From: Providencia vermicola
Lineage (GTDB): Bacteria; Pseudomonadota; Gammaproteobacteria; Enterobacterales; Enterobacteriaceae
Direction: 5' to 3'
Assembly (NCBI RefSeq): GCF_020381325.1
Contig: NZ_JAGSPI010000009.1
Location: 62,001 to 126,000 of the forward strand
DNA length: 64,000 nt
Below the pieces are notes generated by a model. The model searched no databases and was not told the DNA's origin. It saw only the letters and a list, made by a program, of their open reading frames with translations. Positions 15,568 to 25,902 of this stretch are shown in pieces. The position numbers and the translations under genes were made by a program. Positions within the stretch are counted from its first letter, which is position 1; each line of letters starts with the position of its first letter.

Positions 15568-16062
15568 TTAAATTGAGCTCCACCTATCATCACCATCTCG
15601 CCCATCTTTTCCATCTTTACCGCTATTTGGCCCTGAATCATCGCCTTTACCACTGTCACCACTTCCTGAGCCATCTCCACCATTCCCTCCATAGATACCA
15701 CCACTACCGCCATTGCCCCCGTTACCATTGCTTCCTGGTGCTGCATGCCCACCATGGTTCCCGTGACCTTGAACAGTATGGTTTCCACCGTCCTGTCCGT
15801 TATCTCCAGCCTCACGATGACTGCCGTTTGTACCATTTTGTCCACTATTCGAGGTATTTTCTTGATTAATCAATTGAAAAGCATTTTTTTTCTCGAGTAT
15901 TAGCCCACAATTGAATTGTGAGTGCGGATTAGTCATGGTGGTGGTAGTGGCTTCTTGAGATAAGCAATTAATCAATAGATTAAAGGAGTTAGTGGCGTGA
16001 CTAGTAATAGAGATACTCATTAATAATAGAGAGCAGAGCGATAGAGTTGATTGGTTATTCAT
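15568..16062 (-). CDS. exported Gly/Asn-rich protein with collagen-like end, function unknown
   Basis: I do not recognise a family. The frame gives 164 residues from ATG 16062, which has GGAGG five bases upstream; an ATG 12 bases earlier lacks such a site. A signal peptide (1-23, ending ITSHA) is followed by a short N-domain with two cysteines (C33, C52) that could form a disulfide. From about residue 72 the chain is low-complexity Gly/Asn/Asp/Ser. It holds a histidine cluster (H95, H100, H103, H106) and a collagen-like Gly-X-Y run near the end (GKDGKDGRDGDD). It has no membrane anchor or sorting signal. It lies 54 bases downstream of another small exported peptide, probably in one transcript. 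The metal-efflux context and the histidines suggest metal binding, but that is a guess. Confidence 0.7.
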   Translation of the reverse strand: MNNQSTLSLCSLLLMSISITSHATNSFNLLINCLSQEATTTTMTNPHSQFNCGLILEKKNAFQLINQENTSNSGQNGTNGSHREAGDNGQDGGNHTVQGHGNHGGHAAPGSNGNGGNGGSGGIYGGNGGDGSGSGDSGKGDDSGPNSGKDGKDGRDGDDRWSSI

Positions 16063-16116
16063 AAGCGCCTCCATTTCCCCCTTTAGACAAGGGGGAATTA
16101 TTGATTGGTATATTAA

Positions 16117-16266
16117 TTAATGGCTATTACCACCATTTCCACTATGATTCAGCCAGAGTTCAGATGTGACTAACGGCGGAGTCTCTAATAATGAGAGTAA
16201 AGATGATGTTGCAAAAGAGGAAATGGGGAAGAATAAAGATATAATTAAAATAGATATTTTATGCAT
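16117..16266 (-). CDS. 49-residue exported peptide, function unknown
   Basis: A short gene easily missed. It starts at ATG 16266, with AAGGA six bases upstream, and ends TAA at 16117. The first 18 or so residues (MHKISILIISLFFPISSFA) form a clear signal peptide. The mature part of about 30 residues is SSLLSLLETPPLVTSELW followed by LNHSGNGGNSH. This Asn/Gly/His tail resembles the low-complexity part of the protein encoded 54 bases downstream. Signal peptide, good ribosome site and co-directional neighbour make a real gene likely. It might also be a decayed relative of that neighbour. Confidence 0.6.
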   Translation of the reverse strand: MHKISILIISLFFPISSFATSSLLSLLETPPLVTSELWLNHSGNGGNSH

Positions 16267-16465: not shown

Positions 16466-16933
16466 TCAATTAATCGTTTTTAAGTGCTTTTTTATTTCAT
16501 TTTGAATATATTCAGATGAGCTATTTTTATTTAAATTCAGCATGACAATAGCTTTTTCATGTTCATTCATATCTGCAAACAAAGTTGCTGGCTTAGTTTG
16601 AATTTTTTTGAATTTTTTTGATTTTTCAACGTGGGATTGCATACTGTTTAGTATTGTAGGAGCCGTATTATTTTGGGTGAAACTTAAGGCAATGGCCGCT
16701 TTTTCATGGCTATCTAATTGGGAAAATGCCGTACTCATATGCGTATTTTTTTCAGTAGAAATACCCGCCAGGTTTAAATGTTGTTGGATTGCACGTTGGT
16801 TAGCCGCCGAACTATTATTTTCAACGAATGTTAATGCTGTTGCTGCATTTTTATGAGTATTTACGTCTGATTGTGCATTCGCTATATTATTGGTAGCAAC
16901 AATAAAACCTAATGCAATAATAATTTTTTTCAT
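16466..16933 (-). CDS. exported protein of three 49-residue repeats, probable CusR target
   Basis: I do not recognise a family. It has 155 residues with a signal peptide (1-20, ending NIANA). The mature part is three copies of one unit. The invariant histidines are H27/H52, H76/H101 and H125/H150: 25 residues apart within each unit and exactly 49 from unit to unit. The core pattern is D-x(3)-H-x-K-A-x(3)-L followed by an Asn/Ser-rich turn and, at the unit end, H-[LV] (for example DSHEKAAIALSFTQNN). The sequence looks alpha-helical and soluble. There are no cysteines. A near-perfect CusR box lies 83 bases upstream of its start, between it and cusS, so it should respond to copper or silver. A periplasmic metal-binding or stress role is inferred only. 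Confidence 0.8.
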   Translation of the reverse strand: MKKIIIALGFIVATNNIANAQSDVNTHKNAATALTFVENNSSAANQRAIQQHLNLAGISTEKNTHMSTAFSQLDSHEKAAIALSFTQNNTAPTILNSMQSHVEKSKKFKKIQTKPATLFADMNEHEKAIVMLNLNKNSSSEYIQNEIKKHLKTIN

Positions 16934-17015
16934 TATCTATCCTTATTTAATTAAACGAATCTCGAATTTCAATAAGGGCATAATAATAGATGCATGCTGT
17001 CTTAAGACTGACAGT

Positions 17016-17037
17016 AAAATGACAATATTGCCATTTT
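17016..17037. promoter_or_regulatory. CusR box upstream of the repeat-protein gene
   Basis: AAAATGACAA-TA-TTGCCATTTT differs at one base from the known CusR operator AAAATGACAA-N2-TTGTCATTTT. It lies between the cusS stop (17051) and the start of the exported repeat protein (16933). It therefore probably drives that gene, separately from the cusRS transcript. Confidence 0.8.
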
Positions 17038-17050
17038 ATCTTTTAACTGT

Positions 17051-18436
17051 TTAGTTATTGGGTAAAAAAAGAGTAAATTGTGTTGAGTATTCATCAGATG
17101 CTACGTTAATAGTTCCTTTATGGGTCAATATAATGGACTTCACAATGGCGAGGCCGATACCACTTCCTTCATTTTTTCGCTGGCGTGATTTATCGACGCG
17201 GTAAAAACGGTCAAATAACTTTGGTAAATGTTCATCTGGTATTTTTTTTCCGGGGTTACTGACAATAATTTTAATGCCATTTTGGACATTTGCTAGGTTT
17301 ATACTGACAGCGTTACCTTTAGGTGTATAGCGAATTGCATTAGAAATTAAGTTTGTTAGTGCCCTTCTTAGCATGTCTTTATCAGCTAAAATAATGTTAG
17401 CTTCACCAGTCATTGTAAGTTGAATTTCATTGTCTTCAGCTAAGAATTCAAAATAATCGAAAATAAGTGTAATTTCGGATTGGACATCCACTTGCGTTTT
17501 TTCTGGAATAAGTCGGTTATCATCGGCTTGAGCAAGAAATAACATGTCTGAAATCATTCGTGAAAGTCGGTTATATTCTTCTAGGTTTGAATAAAGGACT
17601 TCAACAAGCTCCTCTTTTGTCCGATTTTTATTTAGCGAAATTTGAGTTTCTGTCATTAAGTTTGTAATCGGCGTTCTCATCTCGTGAGCGATATCGGCAG
17701 AAAAATTAGTCTGCCGAACAAAAACATCCTCAATTTTTACTATCATTTGGTTAAATGATTCAGTGAGCTGCTTTAATTCTTTTGGTACGGATGTGGGGTC
17801 TAACCGAATGCTCAAATTTTCCGACGTGACATTTTTAATTTCGTCACTGACTTCTTTAAGGGGCTTAAGCCCTTTAATGACTAAAAAATAGACAATAATA
17901 ATTGTTAGTAAACAGAGTAAAACAGCACTAATAATTAAGTTATTGATTAAGGAGCTCAGGTAATCATGATGAAAGTTAAGAGAAAGTGCGGTGACTAATC
18001 GATATTTTTTTGTGTCATCCGGCACGCTAACCTGAATATGGCTTTCTGCAATACGGTAATTTTCAAGATATTGGTCGTGATTATCTTTTTCAACATTATA
18101 GTTTTTTAATGCTTCAATAATATCTTTATTCGTATTGGGGGAAATTAACGTATTACCCTGATTATCTGAAAGGTAAACAGCAATATCTTGGTGCTCATTT
18201 AAAATGGTTTTTATACGCGAAAATTGTTCATTTTGTGAATCTGAGTTTTCACTTAATAAACTACTAATGGTTAAATTTATTTGGCTTAAGGTGTATTCGT
18301 CCTGTTGCTTAAAATGTAACACAACGGAGTTGATCATGATCCAACTAAATAATAATAAAGCCAGTGAGAGCGTTGCACCGATCAAAACGACGAGTCGAGT
18401 TAAGATAGAAACAGGCGCATTAAATAATTTAATCAT
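17051..18436 (-). CDS. cusS: heavy-metal sensor histidine kinase (CusS type)
   Basis: An inner-membrane sensor of 461 residues that should detect periplasmic Cu(I)/Ag(I) and phosphorylate CusR. A transmembrane helix at about 12-35 is followed by a periplasmic sensor domain of some 130 residues and a second helix at about 170-190 ([21 protein letters not shown] region). A HAMP segment and the kinase core come next. The phosphorylated histidine is in [16 protein letters not shown]; the N box is [15 protein letters not shown] and the G box [13 protein letters not shown]. It overlaps the end of cusR by 8 bases, indicating coupled translation. Metal specificity is inferred from the operator and the neighbouring cusCFBA. 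Confidence 0.9.
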
Positions 18437-19118
18437 TTTCTGGGATCTCTAATAAATATCCCATTCCTCTGATGGTATGGATCAATTTGGGCTCGTAATT
18501 GAGATCTATTTTTGATCTTAAACGCTTAATCGCCACATCAATGACATTGGTATCACTGTCAAAATTCATGTCCCACACTTTTGAGGCAATCAAAGAGCGA
18601 GATAAAACCTCACCTTGGTGTAAAACAAAAAATTCAAGTAGCGCGAATTCTTTACTGGTTAAATTGATTTTATCGTTGGCACGGGTAACGCGTCGTTTTA
18701 TTAAATCGACATGAAGGTCTGCAATATGAAATTGAGTTTTTTGGATATTATTATTGCCACGGCGCAGTAATGTTCGAACACGTGCCAGTAATTCAGAAAA
18801 ATCGAAAGGTTTGATTAAATAATCATCGGCTCCCAATTCGAGCCCTTTTACTCGATGCTCAACATTACCTAATGCTGTTAGCATTAATATGGGCGTATTT
18901 TTTCCCATCGCTCGCAAGTTTTTGGCAATTTCCCAACCATTAATATCGGGTAGCATCACATCAAGAATAATTAAATCATACGCTTCGGTTGTCGCCATAT
19001 GCAGGCCTGTGATCCCATTCTCTATTGCATCAACCACAAAGCCAGATTCTGTTAATCCTTTGGATAAATATTCTCTAGTTTTATGTTCATCTTCCACAAT
19101 AAGTAATTTCACAGTCAC
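18429..19118 (-). CDS. cusR: copper/silver response regulator (CusR type)
   Basis: An OmpR/PhoB-family response regulator of 229 residues. The receiver domain has the acidic site [11 protein letters not shown], the phospho-acceptor aspartate in [16 protein letters not shown] and the lysine in [14 protein letters not shown]. The C-terminal winged helix carries [32 protein letters not shown] and IRGMGYLLE. It is transcribed away from cusC, and the 22-base palindrome between them matches the CusR operator. It should therefore activate cusCFBA, probably its own operon, and the repeat-protein gene to the left. Confidence 0.92.
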
Positions 19119-19171: not shown

Positions 19172-19193
19172 AAAATGACAAATTTGTCATTTT
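19172..19193. promoter_or_regulatory. perfect CusR box between cusR and cusC
   Basis: AAAATGACAA-AT-TTGTCATTTT is a perfect 22-base palindrome and an exact match to the CusR operator defined in E. coli. It lies 54 bases before the cusR start and 73 before cusC, so one site can serve both directions. Confidence 0.93.
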
Positions 19194-19265
19194 CATGTCA
19201 TGAATCTAACAGAGGGTTTTTTTTACGATAACGCTAATTTAAATCACTAGAGGCATGGCTATACC

Positions 19266-20657
19266 ATGTATTTTCTCAAAATATTATTGATAGCGAATGC
19301 CCTGCTTTTAAGTGGCTGTGTTTCATTAGCGCCTGAATACCAACGCCCAAATCTAAATATTCCGAACCAATTAAGCAGCAGTGCACCCACCTCAAGTGAA
19401 GAATCAACATTTTCAGTACCAAGCTGGCAAGCATTTATTCAAGACTCGCAACTGAAAGCAGTTATTCAGCGTGCGCTTGAAAAAAACAGTGATCTTTATT
19501 TAGCGGTATTAGATGTCGAAGAAGCTCGAGCCCGTTTTGGGTTAGCCAGTGCAGAAAGATATCCACAAATTAATGCGTCAATGGGAAGTGAGTATAGCCA
19601 AGGGTTACAGCAAGGCGCTGTATTCGATAAAAAATATAATGCAGGCGTAGATATTCGCTATGAATTGGACTTTTTTGGGCGAATAAAGAACTTAACTGAA
19701 GCGGATAGAGCTAAATTTATTGCCTCAGAAGAGATGCTCAGAGCGACTCAAATTTTAACCATTAAAACAGTTGCAGAAGCGTATTTAGATGTGGCGTATA
19801 ACCAGCAACTCTTATTGATTGCACAAGAGACGAAAACCAGTTACCTCAATAGCCAGTCGATTGTGGCACAAAAAGTGGCAGCGGGAAAAGCGACATTGGC
19901 TGATTTAGAACAAGCGAGAGGGCAAGTCCAGTCAATTGAGATCAATATCGAAAACATTCACCGCGAAATTGCTAGAAATGAAAACTTAGTGAATTTTTTA
20001 ACGAATGACTATATTCAACAAGTCAAAATGCCAGAAGGTGGTTTTGAGCTTAATTACCCGTTGATTACAGCCCCCTCAGTCTTATCGTCTGACATTCTAT
20101 TAAGCCGTCCAGATATTATAGCAGCAGAGCAAAATATTATTTCTGAAAATGCCAATATTGGCGTAGCAAGAGCAGCCTTTTTCCCGTCGATTTCCTTCAA
20201 TACTGGTGTTGCTAATAGTAACGACTCGTTATCTGGCTTATTTGACTCTTCTAATGGTGTTTGGAATTTTATTCCTAAAATCACCTTACCTATTTTTACT
20301 GGGGGAACAAATAGCCGAAATCTAGAGCTCGCAAATATTCGTAAAAATAAAGCGATAGTGAACTACGAAAAAAGTATTCAAGTAGCATTTCGTGAAGTGA
20401 AAGATGCGTTTGTTATTAAGTCGAGTTTGGAGAGGCAATTAAGTGAACAGGTACTGTACGTCAATACATTGCAGAGTGTCTTAACACAGAAACAATCAAG
20501 TTACCGCTATGGGGGTGCCACCAGCTACCTTGATGTACTTGAAGCACAGAGAAGCTTATTTACTGAGCAGCAAAATTTACTGAAGTTAAAAATCGAACAG
20601 CAGAAGAATGAGGTGACTTTGTTCTCTGCACTAGGTGGTGGGTTTATTAAATCATAA
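19266..20657 (+). CDS. cusC: Cu(I)/Ag(I) efflux outer-membrane channel CusC
   Basis: A TolC-like outer-membrane factor of 463 residues. The N-terminus is a lipoprotein signal with lipobox LLLSGC, so the mature protein should be acylated at Cys18. Two repeats of the OEP family follow, each with long helices and short strands (SDLYLAVLDVEEARARFGLASAERYPQ and PDIIAAEQNIISENANIGVARAAFFPS). It forms the outer channel of the CusCBA pump. It leads the cusCFBA operon and lies behind a perfect CusR box. Confidence 0.92.
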   Translation: MYFLKILLIANALLLSGCVSLAPEYQRPNLNIPNQLSSSAPTSSEESTFSVPSWQAFIQDSQLKAVIQRALEKNSDLYLAVLDVEEARARFGLASAERYPQINASMGSEYSQGLQQGAVFDKKYNAGVDIRYELDFFGRIKNLTEADRAKFIASEEMLRATQILTIKTVAEAYLDVAYNQQLLLIAQETKTSYLNSQSIVAQKVAAGKATLADLEQARGQVQSIEINIENIHREIARNENLVNFLTNDYIQQVKMPEGGFELNYPLITAPSVLSSDILLSRPDIIAAEQNIISENANIGVARAAFFPSISFNTGVANSNDSLSGLFDSSNGVWNFIPKITLPIFTGGTNSRNLELANIRKNKAIVNYEKSIQVAFREVKDAFVIKSSLERQLSEQVLYVNTLQSVLTQKQSSYRYGGATSYLDVLEAQRSLFTEQQNLLKLKIEQQKNEVTLFSALGGGFIKS

Positions 20658-20665
20658 GGATAAGT

Positions 20666-21007
20666 ATGAAAAAGTTAAACGGTATTATTTTTGTCCTTTC
20701 AATCGGCATATTCACTGCGACAGGTTACGCAAATGCAGCGGATCATAATCACTCTGTGTACCCTGAAAAAGTTGCAGAACCTGTTATTAATACGGAGGGG
20801 AAATTAATTTCTATTGATAAAGAAAATAAGAAATTAACGATTAATCACAAAGAGATTGAAAGTATTGGTTGGCCACCAATGACGATGCGCTTCACTTATG
20901 AAGATGAAAATATGATTAAAGGCTTACAAGACAATGACGAATTAAAATTTTCCTTTGAGCAAAAAGGCAATCTTTCAATATTGAAATCCGTCGAAAAAAT
21001 AAACTAA
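20666..21007 (+). CDS. cusF: periplasmic Cu(I)/Ag(I) chaperone CusF
   Basis: A 113-residue exported metallochaperone that hands Cu(I)/Ag(I) to CusB. A signal peptide (about 1-25) is followed by a small OB-fold. The metal site is complete: H61, W69, M72 and M74 in INHKEIESIGWPPMTM reproduce the spacing of H36, W44, M47 and M49 in E. coli CusF. The tryptophan caps the metal by a cation-pi contact. It is translated 8 bases after cusC. Confidence 0.95.
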   Translation: MKKLNGIIFVLSIGIFTATGYANAADHNHSVYPEKVAEPVINTEGKLISIDKENKKLTINHKEIESIGWPPMTMRFTYEDENMIKGLQDNDELKFSFEQKGNLSILKSVEKIN

Positions 21008-22296: not shown

Positions 22297-25200
22297 ATGT
22301 TGGAATGGGTTATAAGACGCTCGGTTGCGAATCGCTTTTTAGTCTTAATGGGGGTGGTATTTTTAGTCATAGCAGGAATATGGAGTATTCGTAGTACGCC
22401 AGTGGATGCACTGCCTGACTTATCTGATGTGCAGGTGATCATCAAAACCACTTATCCAGGACAAGCTCCCCAACTGGTTGAAAACCAAGTTACTTACCCA
22501 ATTACGACCACAATGTTATCCGTGCCAGGGGCGAAAACAGTTCGCGGCTTTTCTGCCTTCGGTGATTCTTATGTGTATGTGATTTTTGAGGATAATACGG
22601 ATTTATATTGGGCTCGTTCACGGGTTTTGGAATATTTAAACCAAGTTCAGGCAAAACTGCCAAAAGGTGCAGTCGCCTCAATTGGCCCGGATGCAACAGG
22701 TGTAGGTTGGGTGTTTGAATATGCCTTGGTTGATAAAAACGGTAAACATAACTTAGCTGAGTTACGATCGCTGCAAGATTGGTTTTTGAAATATGAATTA
22801 AAAGCGCTGCCAAATGTTTCTGAAGTTGCAACAGTTGGTGGTGTAGTGAAGTCTTATCAAATTATTGTTGACCCACTTAAATTAACGCAGTTTTCAGTGA
22901 CGTTACCTGAAATAAAACAAGCCGTTGAAATGGCGAATCAAGAGGCTGGTGGGTCTTCCATCGAAATTGCTGAAGCTGAGTTTATGGTTAGAGCCAATGG
23001 TTATCTGCAATCTATGGATGACTTTAATAAAATCTACCTGAAAATGGCAGAAAATAACGTCCCAATCTACCTGAAAGATGTTGCTCGTATTCAAGAAGGC
23101 CCAGAAATGCGCCGTGGTGTTGCTGAGCTTAACGGGGAAGGTGAAGTTGTCGGTGGGATCATTTTATTACGTTCAGGTGAAAATGCGCGAAATGTTATTA
23201 ATGATGTAAAACAAAAGCTTGAAGATTTAAGTGCGAGTTTGCCTGACGGTATTGAAATCATCACAACCTATGATAGAAGCATTCTGATTGATAATGCGAT
23301 TGATAACCTCAGCGATAAATTGTTAGAAGAGTTTATTGTTGTTGCTTTAGTTTGTGCAGTTTTCTTATGGCATTTCCGCTCTGCTTTAGTCGCGATTATT
23401 TCTTTACCTCTAGGGCTATTTATTGCGTTTATTGTTATGCGTTACCAAGGAATAAATGCAAACATTATGTCGCTTGGGGGAATTGCGATTGCGATTGGCG
23501 CAATGGTTGATGCGGCTATTGTGATGATTGAAAATGCCCACAAGAAATTAGAAAAATGGCAACATCAACATGAAGGGCAAGTTCTTGATAATACACAGCG
23601 TTGGAAATTAATTACTGACTCAGCAGTTGAAGTCGGGCCTGCATTATTTATCAGCTTACTTATTATCACGTTGTCTTTTATTCCCATCTTTACGTTGGAA
23701 GGCCAAGAAGGGCGTTTATTTGGCCCTCTGGCCTTTACCAAAACCTATGCGATGGCTGGGGCTGCTGCACTAGCATTAATCGTAATTCCGATATTAATGG
23801 GGTATTGGATCCGCGGTAATATCCCAAATGAAAATAAAAACCCACTAAACCGCTGGCTAATTGCAATATATAGCCCAATGTTATTAAAAGTGTTGGCATG
23901 GCCGAAAACGACATTGCTGATTGGCATTTTGTCATTGTTTACCGTGATATGGCCATTAAAGCATTTAGGGGGTGAATTTCTCCCGTCAATTAATGAAGGT
24001 GATTTGCTGTATATGCCCTCAACACTACCGGGGGTATCTCCTGCTCAAGCGGCGTTTTTACTACAAAATACCGATAAGCTAATCAAAACTATTCCTGAAG
24101 TTGATACCGTTTTTGGCAAGGTGGGGAAAGCAGAAACCGCTACTGACTCGGCACCGATGGAAATGATCGAAACCACCATTCGTTTAAAGCCACAGTCTGA
24201 GTGGCGTGAAGGGATGACACTGGAAAAAATTATCGATGAGTTAGATGAAACTGTGCGTTTGCCAGGGGTTGCTAATTTATGGGTTCCACCGATTCGTAAT
24301 CGAATCGATATGCTTTCCACAGGGGTTAAAAGCCCGATAGGCATTAAAGTTTCAGGGAAAGACCTCGAAGAAATCGATGCATTTGCACAACAGATTGAAA
24401 AAGTGACGAAAACAGTCCCAGGGGTCGTCTCTGTGTTAGCCGAACGGCTGGTGGGCGGTCGGTATGTTGATGTCAAAATCGATAGGGAAAAAGCCGCTCG
24501 TTTTGGTATGAGTATCAGTGATGTACAGGTTTATATCTCTATGGCGACAGGGGGGGAGATGATAGGAGAAACCGTTGAAGGGATTGAGCGTTACCCCATT
24601 AGCCTAAGGTACCCACAGGATTACCGAAACAGTGTTTCTGCATTGAAACTATTACCGATTTTAACACCAAATAAGCAACAAATCGTTCTCAGTGATGTGG
24701 CTGATGTGGTAGTGCAAATGGGGCCACCGATGCTAAAAACAGAAAATGCACGGCCCACCAGTTGGATTTATATCGATGCGCGGGATAGGGATATGGTCTC
24801 TGTCATTAATGATATCGATATGGCAATAAAAAATAATATTCAAATGAAATCAGGGGTCAGTTACTCCTTCACAGGACAATTTGAATTACTTGAAAGAGCC
24901 AACCAAAAATTAATGTTAATGGTACCTGCTACCATCATGATTATTTTTGTCTTGCTCTATTTAGCCTTCAGGCGCTTTAGTGAGGCTCTGTTGATTTTAT
25001 TAAGTTTGCCTTTTGCATTAGTGGGCGCTATTTGGTTCCTATATGGGATGAATTTTAATTTATCCGTTGCAACAGGGACTGGCTTTATTGCATTAGCTGG
25101 GGTCGCTGCTGAATTTGGTGTGGTGATGTTGATTTATTTAAGGCATGCCATTGAAGATAGAGAAAAACTGCAAGGAATAAACACATTATCCAATCAGGAT

Positions 25201-25434
25201 TTAGATAGTGCGTTATATGAAGGGGCAGTATTGCGTGTCCGACCTAAAGCGATGACAGTTGCTGTTATTTTAGCAGGATTATTGCCAATTTTATTAGGAA
25301 CAGGAGTTGGGTCAGAGGTGATGAGCCGAATTGCTGCCCCAATGATTGGCGGGATGATAACGGCACCATTGTTATCGTTATTTATCATTCCTGCTGCATA
25401 TAAATTAATTTGCCAAATGCGCCATAAAAAATAG
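22297..25434 (+). CDS. cusA: Cu(I)/Ag(I) RND efflux transporter CusA
   Basis: A heavy-metal RND pump of 1045 residues with about 12 transmembrane helices, driven by proton import. The proton-relay aspartate is in the helix [19 protein letters not shown]. The three metal-binding methionines of the periplasmic cleft are present in [22 protein letters not shown] and [14 protein letters not shown]. The N-terminus [17 protein letters not shown] is typical of the CzcA/CusA family. It forms the inner-membrane trimer of the CusCBA complex, and all methionine sites favour Cu/Ag over Zn/Co/Ni. Confidence 0.96.
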
Positions 25435-25479: not shown

Positions 25480-25902
25480 ATGAAAAAGATAATTTTAGGT
25501 GGAATGTTTTTACTGTCATTTTCTGCATTTTCTCAAAACCAGAGCGTGCAACTGTATAAAGATGCCAACTGCGGTTGCTGCCAGTTATGGGGAGAAGGCG
25601 TAAAAAAAGCAGGGTATGACGTTGTGGTCAATGAAATTAGTTATGATGAATTGAACAAATTGAATGATGAGCTGAATGTGCCATACAACTTACGCAGCTG
25701 CCATATCGCAAAATACAAAGGTAAAGTGATTGTTGGGCATGTGCCTGTGAGCAGCTTAGACACGATTGATACGTTGCCTACGGATGTGGTTGGAATTTCA
25801 GTACCAGGCATGCCAATTGGCAGCTTAGGTATGGAGCAACCAGATGGGAGAACGCAGCCGTATTCCGTGGTTCAATTTAAAGCCAATGGCGAATACCGTT
25901 AG
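25480..25902 (+). CDS. CopG-family (DUF411) exported metal-binding protein
   Basis: A 140-residue exported protein with a signal peptide (about 1-18) and a DUF411 domain. The metal-binding cysteines are C31, C33 and C34 in KDANCGCCQLWG, and a fourth cysteine is in NLRSCHIAKYKGKVIVGHVP. The end has VPGMPIGSLGMEQPDGRTQPYSV, typical of the family. DUF411 proteins often accompany copper and silver resistance operons as periplasmic copper-binding or redox factors. The gene is 45 bases after cusA and likely the last of the operon; a hairpin follows at 25921-25944. It is unrelated to the plasmid repressor also called CopG. Confidence 0.88.
   Translation: MKKIILGGMFLLSFSAFSQNQSVQLYKDANCGCCQLWGEGVKKAGYDVVVNEISYDELNKLNDELNVPYNLRSCHIAKYKGKVIVGHVPVSSLDTIDTLPTDVVGISVPGMPIGSLGMEQPDGRTQPYSVVQFKANGEYR

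What the first reader, a model, noticed from the sequence alone, without database searches (positions are those of the whole stretch)
16466..17037. Unrecognised secreted protein with an exact 49-residue, three-fold histidine repeat under a CusR box
The 155-residue exported protein has three units with invariant histidines at 27/52, 76/101 and 125/150: 25 apart inside each unit and 49 between units. Upstream (17016-17037) is a CusR operator with one mismatch, distinct from the perfect one between cusR and cusC. The E. coli cus system has no such gene. A metal-induced, His-bearing periplasmic repeat protein would be a new accessory part of copper/silver defence.
Basis: partly seen in the sequence, partly recalled or inferred. 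Interest (0 to 1): 0.75.

Follow-up and report, generated by a model that had tools for sequence, protein, structure and literature searches.

The report
Chromosomal SilE/PcoE-like copper/silver-binding protein
Beside the copper/silver export genes of a Providencia chromosome lies a distant, stripped-down cousin of the known silver- and copper-soaking proteins SilE and PcoE, probably switched on by the same copper sensor; the protein kind is known, but this version has lost most of the residues that bind metal in its cousins.

Summary
Window 16466-16933(-) encodes a divergent SilE/PcoE-type protein: NCBIfam SilE E 3e-13 (50 bits, cut-off 200), profile-profile probability 98.5%. The 49-residue repeat is the family's own. 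SilE/PcoE units carry His at 0, 7, 18 and 25 plus Met; the window protein keeps only His 0 and 25, with Leu at 7. Gene order from the SilE-like gene to DUF411 is that of plasmid sil. After the CusR box come TGTCA, ACAG and a -10 at the same distances as in cusC, silE and pcoE-type promoters. Of 24 Providencia genomes, 14 have CusA and the same 14 have the gene. pcoE is already reported as CusRS-controlled (PMC5008109, passage). Best reading: a CusR-induced periplasmic Cu(I)/Ag(I)-binding accessory with few ligands. A paralog group without a CusR box lies elsewhere. What seems new, within a few limited paper searches, is the ligand-poor subfamily and its promoter layout.

The parts
16466..16933 (-). 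SilE/PcoE-like 155-aa exported three-unit repeat protein
16874..16933 (-). residues 1-20, Sec-type signal peptide ending ANA
   Evidence: read directly from sequence; no signal-peptide predictor run
16763..16864 (-). repeat unit 1 (residues 24-57, His27/His52)
16616..16717 (-). repeat unit 2 (residues 73-106, His76/His101)
16469..16570 (-). repeat unit 3 (residues 122-155, Met122-His125/His150; aligns with SilE M108/H111 and H136)
17016..17037 (-). CusR-type box, 1 mismatch, 83 nt upstream of the ATG
17009..17013 (-). TGTCA element 2 nt after the box (14 of 14 orthologous promoters, also cusC and silE)
16997..17000 (-). ACAG element (exact in 12 of 14 orthologous promoters)
16980..16985 (-). 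-10-like TATTAT, 30 nt after the box (14 of 14)
   Evidence: the generic sigma-70 scan did not list it
17051..18436 (-). CusS/SilS sensor kinase
   Evidence: NF007345, 548 bits, cut-off 423
18429..19118 (-). CusR/SilR response regulator
   Evidence: TIGR01387 333 bits above cut-off 279; NF007346 388 bits below cut-off 420
19172..19193 (+). perfect CusR box between cusR and cusC
19266..20657 (+). CusC/SilC-like outer-membrane channel
   Evidence: ORF; 44% to the region annotated silC
20666..21007 (+). CusF/SilF-like metallochaperone
   Evidence: Pfam PF11604
21025..22293 (+). CusB/SilB-like adaptor
   Evidence: 53% to the region annotated silB
22297..25434 (+). CusA/SilA-like RND pump, 77% to the region annotated silA
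25480..25902 (+). DUF411 protein, same place as in plasmid sil

Best explanation
The gene encodes a divergent, ligand-poor homologue of SilE/PcoE. When periplasmic Cu(I)/Ag(I) rises, CusS phosphorylates CusR; CusR binds the box at 17016-17037 and drives a promoter laid out like those of cusC, silE and pcoE. The product is exported and binds Cu(I)/Ag(I) weakly to moderately through the paired His 0/His 25 of each 49-residue unit and the Met122-His125 site of unit 3, buffering the metal before CusF/CusB and CusCBA remove it. Shown here by sequence: homology, repeat register, gene order, promoter layout, co-occurrence and purifying selection. Inferred: induction by metal, CusR binding, metal binding, and hand-over to the pump.
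For: Homology: NCBIfam SilE E 3.2e-13, hit by 12 of 12 members of a mixed alignment; profile-profile probability 98.5%, E 2.5e-15; 30% over full length to plasmid SilE, E 8e-3. Repeat: SilE His 62/69/80/87 and 111/118/129/136 repeat every 49 residues; window H76/H101/H125/H150 align with SilE H62/H87/H111/H136 and M122 with M108. PMC5008109 names H80, H87, H111 and M108 as most important for Ag-driven folding (Discussion); three of these four are kept. Synteny with sil. Promoter: TGTCA 14/14, ACAG 12/14, TATTAT 14/14 in orthologues; cusC boxes TGTCA 13/13, ACAG 11/13; boxes read the other way 0 of 13 TGTCA (5 cus boxes, 8 of these genes' boxes). Co-occurrence: CusA (E <= 1e-200) in 14 of 24 Providencia genomes, the gene in the same 14. 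dN/dS 0.18-0.31 for the window against 11 of 12 orthologues (dS above 1 in most).
Against: The NCBIfam equivalog cut-off is missed (50 against 200 bits) and no Pfam model hits better than E 0.12. Position 7 is His in 10 of 10 SilE/PcoE-type units but in 0 of 39 cus-linked units. The mature protein has 7 His and 4 Met against 10 and 10 in SilE. In five of 13 proteins unit 3 has lost both His, and in three unit 2 has lost His 0. H80, one of the four key SilE residues, is missing. The generic promoter scan did not list the -10, and the -10 of cusC matches only 3-4 of 6. No structure could be predicted.
Confidence: 0.72

Rival explanations
1. The protein is related to SilE/PcoE but is not a sponge: hydrophobic residues stand where inner His are in SilE, giving a pre-folded helical repeat that acts as a partner, chaperone or signal modulator of CusS or CusB with few or no bound metal ions.
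For: Position 7 is Leu in 38 and Phe in 1 of 39 units; positions 10 and 28 hold no Met in 39 of 39; the invariant residues include scaffold positions (L34, F36, E38, N39, N88, N137) as well as H27, H52, H101. Paralogs show the same substitution (Leu in 17, Met in 1 of 18 units) without a CusR box. PMC5008109 itself raises signalling to SilS as a possibility.
Against: His 0 and His 25 are kept in 31 and 34 of 39 cus-linked units and 16 and 18 of 18 paralog units; the CusR promoter layout is conserved.
Confidence: 0.2
2. A decaying relic of a sil-type locus.
For: One orthologue (G009) ends at 138 aa inside unit 3; unit 3 His are lost in five others.
Against: dN/dS 0.18-0.31 against the window and 0.18-0.35 in six chosen pairs; 13 of 14 full-length; promoter elements conserved.
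Confidence: 0.05
3. A new, unrelated family of metal-induced His-repeat proteins.
For: No significant Pfam match; low pairwise identity to SilE (30%).
Against: same 49-residue register and same locus position as SilE.
Confidence: 0.02

Closest known systems
SilE (plasmid sil operon; silver-binding 'molecular sponge', PMC5008109)
   Same: Exported small protein, 49-residue unit, His at unit positions 0 and 25, MNEHE motif of the last unit, gene next to silS, CusR-type box (4 mismatches) and the same downstream promoter elements.
   Different: Three full-length units instead of two plus a remnant; inner His 7/18 and most Met missing; 30% identity; below the NCBIfam SilE cut-off.
PcoE (plasmid pco operon; Cu-binding, CusRS-regulated)
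   Same: Same repeat; CusRS control is reported for pcoE (PMC5008109, PMC7558416, passages); the gene next to a predicted pcoS (L039), which I take for pcoE, shows the same promoter layout with AGTCA for TGTCA.
   Different: That relative carries 10 His and 15 Met in the mature part; plasmid-borne; about 28% identity.
E. coli chromosomal cusRS-cusCFBA
   Same: The sensor and regulator match models named for the Cu/Ag two-component system and the box fits the recalled E. coli CusR consensus; the two loci were not aligned directly.
   Different: PMC4356207 (passage) says E. coli cus has no SilE counterpart and no ORF105; the window locus has both a SilE-like gene and a DUF411 gene in the ORF105 position.

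Membership tests
SilE/PcoE homologous group | Significant profile similarity over the whole chain | tested here: met
   hhalign 98.5%, E 2.5e-15, 140 columns; NF047789 E 3.2e-13
SilE/PcoE homologous group | 49-residue repeat with His at unit positions 0 and 25 | tested here: met
SilE/PcoE homologous group | Gene adjacent to the cus/sil/pco-type sensor gene, CusR-type promoter | tested here: met
SilE sensu stricto (NCBIfam equivalog) | Curated score cut-off 200 bits | tested here: not met
   50.2 bits; hence SilE/PcoE-like, not SilE
SilE / PcoE proper | Ten conserved His incl. unit positions 7 and 18, and the Met of motifs MxxHxxxxxxHxxMxx and HxxMxxxHxxMxx (PMC5008109) | tested here: not met
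   position 7 His 0 of 39 units, position 18 His 0 of 39
SilE / PcoE proper | Binds Ag(I)/Cu(I) and folds on binding | not testable with these tools
CusR regulon | CusR box in activating position (sequence only) | tested here: met
   consensus recalled, binding and induction not tested

The most novel reading that the evidence does not exclude
Providencia has a ligand-stripped SilE/PcoE subfamily. Six of the eight SilE ligands per unit pair symmetrically about unit position 12.5 (His 0/25, His 7/18, Met -3/28), as rungs of an antiparallel helical hairpin would; Met 10 and 21 do not fit this symmetry. Providencia keeps only the outer His rung, with Leu at position 7 of the inner one. This would make a stably folded repeat protein rather than a disordered metal-folded sponge, serving CusS or CusB as a low-capacity chaperone or signal partner, with a second copy outside cus control.
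Probability: 0.25. Interest if true: 0.55.

Novelty: new variant of a known kind. Interest (0 to 1): 0.33.

Why it matters
PMC4356207 (passages) reports that SilE is needed for sil-based silver resistance and that adding it to an E. coli strain with a derepressed cus system gives resistance. Providencia is a natural case of a chromosomal cus locus that carries a SilE-type gene with most metal ligands absent and the CusR promoter kept. That makes it possible to ask which part of SilE's role needs the many His/Met ligands. The promoter layout also gives a way to look for further CusR-driven genes.

Tried and rejected
Rejected: unrelated new family; chance repeat; chance box. No help: Pfam, PDB sequences (two hits, E 1.2 and 1.4), generic promoter/terminator scan (the promoter-like sites found are no more than in shuffles), alignment of paralog upstream regions (no clear shared element beyond the gene start). 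The six full-length paralogs have no CusR box within 400 nt upstream (best 6-8 mismatches). Cus loci of two relatives with CusA about 75% identical (G024, G034) gave no SilE-like ORF in the fetched stretch. In the order-wide sample 5 of 394 genomes have the family, own genome included. The paper searches that joined Providencia with SilE (3 papers), PcoE (7), cusCFBA (5) or SilE homolog/CusR (8) list no title on this gene; of those papers only PMC3119697 and PMC5008109 were opened. One search on CusR box, TGTCA and cusC (16 papers, 10 listed, none opened) was all I did on the promoter layout, and the original CusR papers were not read, so its novelty is uncertain. PMC5008109 was read as passages and its Discussion; PMC4356207, PMC7558416, PMC8686694 and PMC3119697 as passages only. 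I did not look at how public records annotate the Providencia gene.

Two corrections to my notebook: the G010 copy, which I noted as broken by stops, is an open 112-aa two-unit ORF; and the extra TGTCA, noted as 3-4 nt after the box, lies 2 nt after it.

Full report
Observation. The 155-aa ORF at 16466-16933(-) and its His pattern are as described. Comparing the mature protein with itself, offset 49 is by far the best; 0 of 20000 shuffles reach that score. The two CusR boxes are the only sites with at most 3 mismatches in the window; the whole genome has only two others, at 3 mismatches each, which is about what the reversed control pattern gives.

What it is. NCBIfam's SilE model hits it at E 3.2e-13, 50 bits, under its 200-bit equivalog cut-off. 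12 of 12 members of a mixed alignment hit that model; three further families hit one member each, E 0.002 or worse. tblastn against 72,556 plasmids (E up to 1) gave 2480 records; all 20 rows listed are SilE genes, 30% identity, E about 0.01. Profile-profile comparison of A2 (13 cus-linked proteins and the own-genome paralog) with A3 (5 SilE/PcoE-type sequences) gives 98.5% probability and E 2.5e-15 (one of the five, L078, was given with a shifted range, so its leader was extended and its end cut). It is therefore a divergent SilE/PcoE homologue, not an unknown family, and also not SilE in the strict sense.

The repeat. Over 39 units of 13 full-length cus-linked proteins (the fourteenth, G009, was left out because it ends at 138 aa), His or Met is found at position 0 in 31, 25 in 34, -3 in 14, 21 in 9, 18 in 7 (all Met), 10 in 5 (all His), and at 7 and 28 in none. 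Over 10 units of five SilE/PcoE-type proteins the numbers, in the same order, are 10, 8, 9, 7, 8, 7, 10 and 6 (the second unit of the two PcoE-type proteins has a one-residue insertion that I did not correct for, which lowers the counts beyond it). The window's M122-H125 aligns with SilE M108-H111, residues that PMC5008109 reports as important in Ag-driven folding.

The locus. Gene order is thrC / SilE-like - cusS - cusR / cusC - F - B - A - DUF411. L079 has it whole; L080 has it with CusA in pieces; six named Providencia loci (L083-L088) match as far as their stretches reach, into cusA. In the other five genomes with the gene (G006, G008, G009, G011, G015) I judged linkage by distance alone: CusA lies about 5.3-5.4 kb away. 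Plasmid sil has the same order from silE to DUF411. G046, another genus of the same family, carries a ligand-rich SilE-like gene after cusS on a 4.7-Mb contig.

Genus. Contigs of same-genus genomes have the lengths of named Providencia records, so the window is from Providencia. Of 24 Providencia genomes, CusA is found at E <= 1e-200 in 14 (in pieces in G012), and the cus-linked gene in the same 14. Of the other 10, nine have no family member and G010 has only a two-unit copy. These are not independent events, since the locus may come and go as a block. Among 119 relatives (own genome included) 17 have a match, 15 of them Providencia; in a sample of 394 genomes of the order 5, own genome included.

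Promoter. In all 14 orthologous promoters the box is followed by TGTCA at exactly +3 to +7 and TATTAT at +31 to +36; ACAG at +16 to +19 is exact in 12 and TCAG in 2. The cusC promoters of 13 loci (9 Providencia, 4 others) show TGTCA in 13 and ACAG in 11, with a poorer -10 at that place (4 of 6 letters in 12, 3 of 6 in 1). Plasmid silE (2 of 2 records) shows TGTCA, ACAG and TATAAT, and two PcoE-type genes AGTCA, ACAG and TATAAT. Controls: five cus boxes and eight boxes of the SilE-like genes read in the opposite direction, and four readings of the two other genome sites, show TGTCA there in 0 of 17. The box itself is weak in some: two Providencia orthologues and all four SilE/PcoE-type genes have 4 mismatches (all). 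This supports CusR-driven transcription of the gene; binding was not tested.

Selection. dN/dS for the mature part is 0.18-0.31 for the window against 11 of 12 orthologues; for L012 dS could not be computed, and dS exceeds 1 in most, so these values are rough. Six chosen pairs, one of them already in that set, give 0.18-0.35, the two closest 0.33 and 0.35. The gene looks maintained.

Paralog. Full-length three-unit paralogs occur in 6 of 24 Providencia genomes (own: L005 9533-10000 -), in the same register; one (L030) has Asn for His 0 in units 2 and 3. None has a CusR box. In 6 of 6 a PACE-type (PF05232) and a LysR-type gene lie within about 7 kb. G005 has a 66-aa fragment, G010 a two-unit 112-aa copy.

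Mechanism. PcoE and SilE are described as periplasmic metal sponges (PMC5008109, PMC7558416); PMC4356207 reports that silE deletion abolishes sil-based silver resistance; PMC8686694 describes SilE and SilB peptides competing for silver (passages). I carry this over by homology: CusR induces the protein, it holds Cu(I)/Ag(I) through the outer His pair and the Met-His site, and the pump clears the metal. With so few ligands the capacity should be lower, and a structural or signalling role is a real alternative.

Noticed in passing
L005:9533-10000 (-), own genome contig C7: Paralog in the same 25/49 His register, no CusR box, near a PACE/chlorhexidine-type transporter gene and a LysR gene; both neighbours are found near 6 of 6 full-length paralogs.
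   Followed up: partly
window 15568-16074 (-): Exported 168-aa protein with a Gly/Asn/Asp-rich low-complexity half; a match in only 1 (L079) of the 8 Providencia cus loci tested.
   Followed up: partly
window 16117-16266 (-): Small exported ORF of 49 aa ending GNGGNSH, between the Gly-rich ORF and the SilE-like gene.
   Followed up: no
window 17037-16980 (-) and 19172-19229 (+): CusR-type promoters share TGTCA, ACAG and a -10 at fixed distances after the box, in one direction only; a possible pattern for finding CusR targets.
   Followed up: yes
window 25480-25902 (+): DUF411 protein gene after cusA, in the place of ORF105 of plasmid sil.
   Followed up: partly
L001:1154-1606, L038:6229-6681: A further family member, annotated 'copper resistance protein' (WP_001023257.1), between pcoA and silP on two plasmids; found by the family profile, E 2.8e-23.
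   Followed up: no
L080:10048-11130 and beyond (G012): CusA of this Providencia genome is found only in pieces.
   Followed up: no
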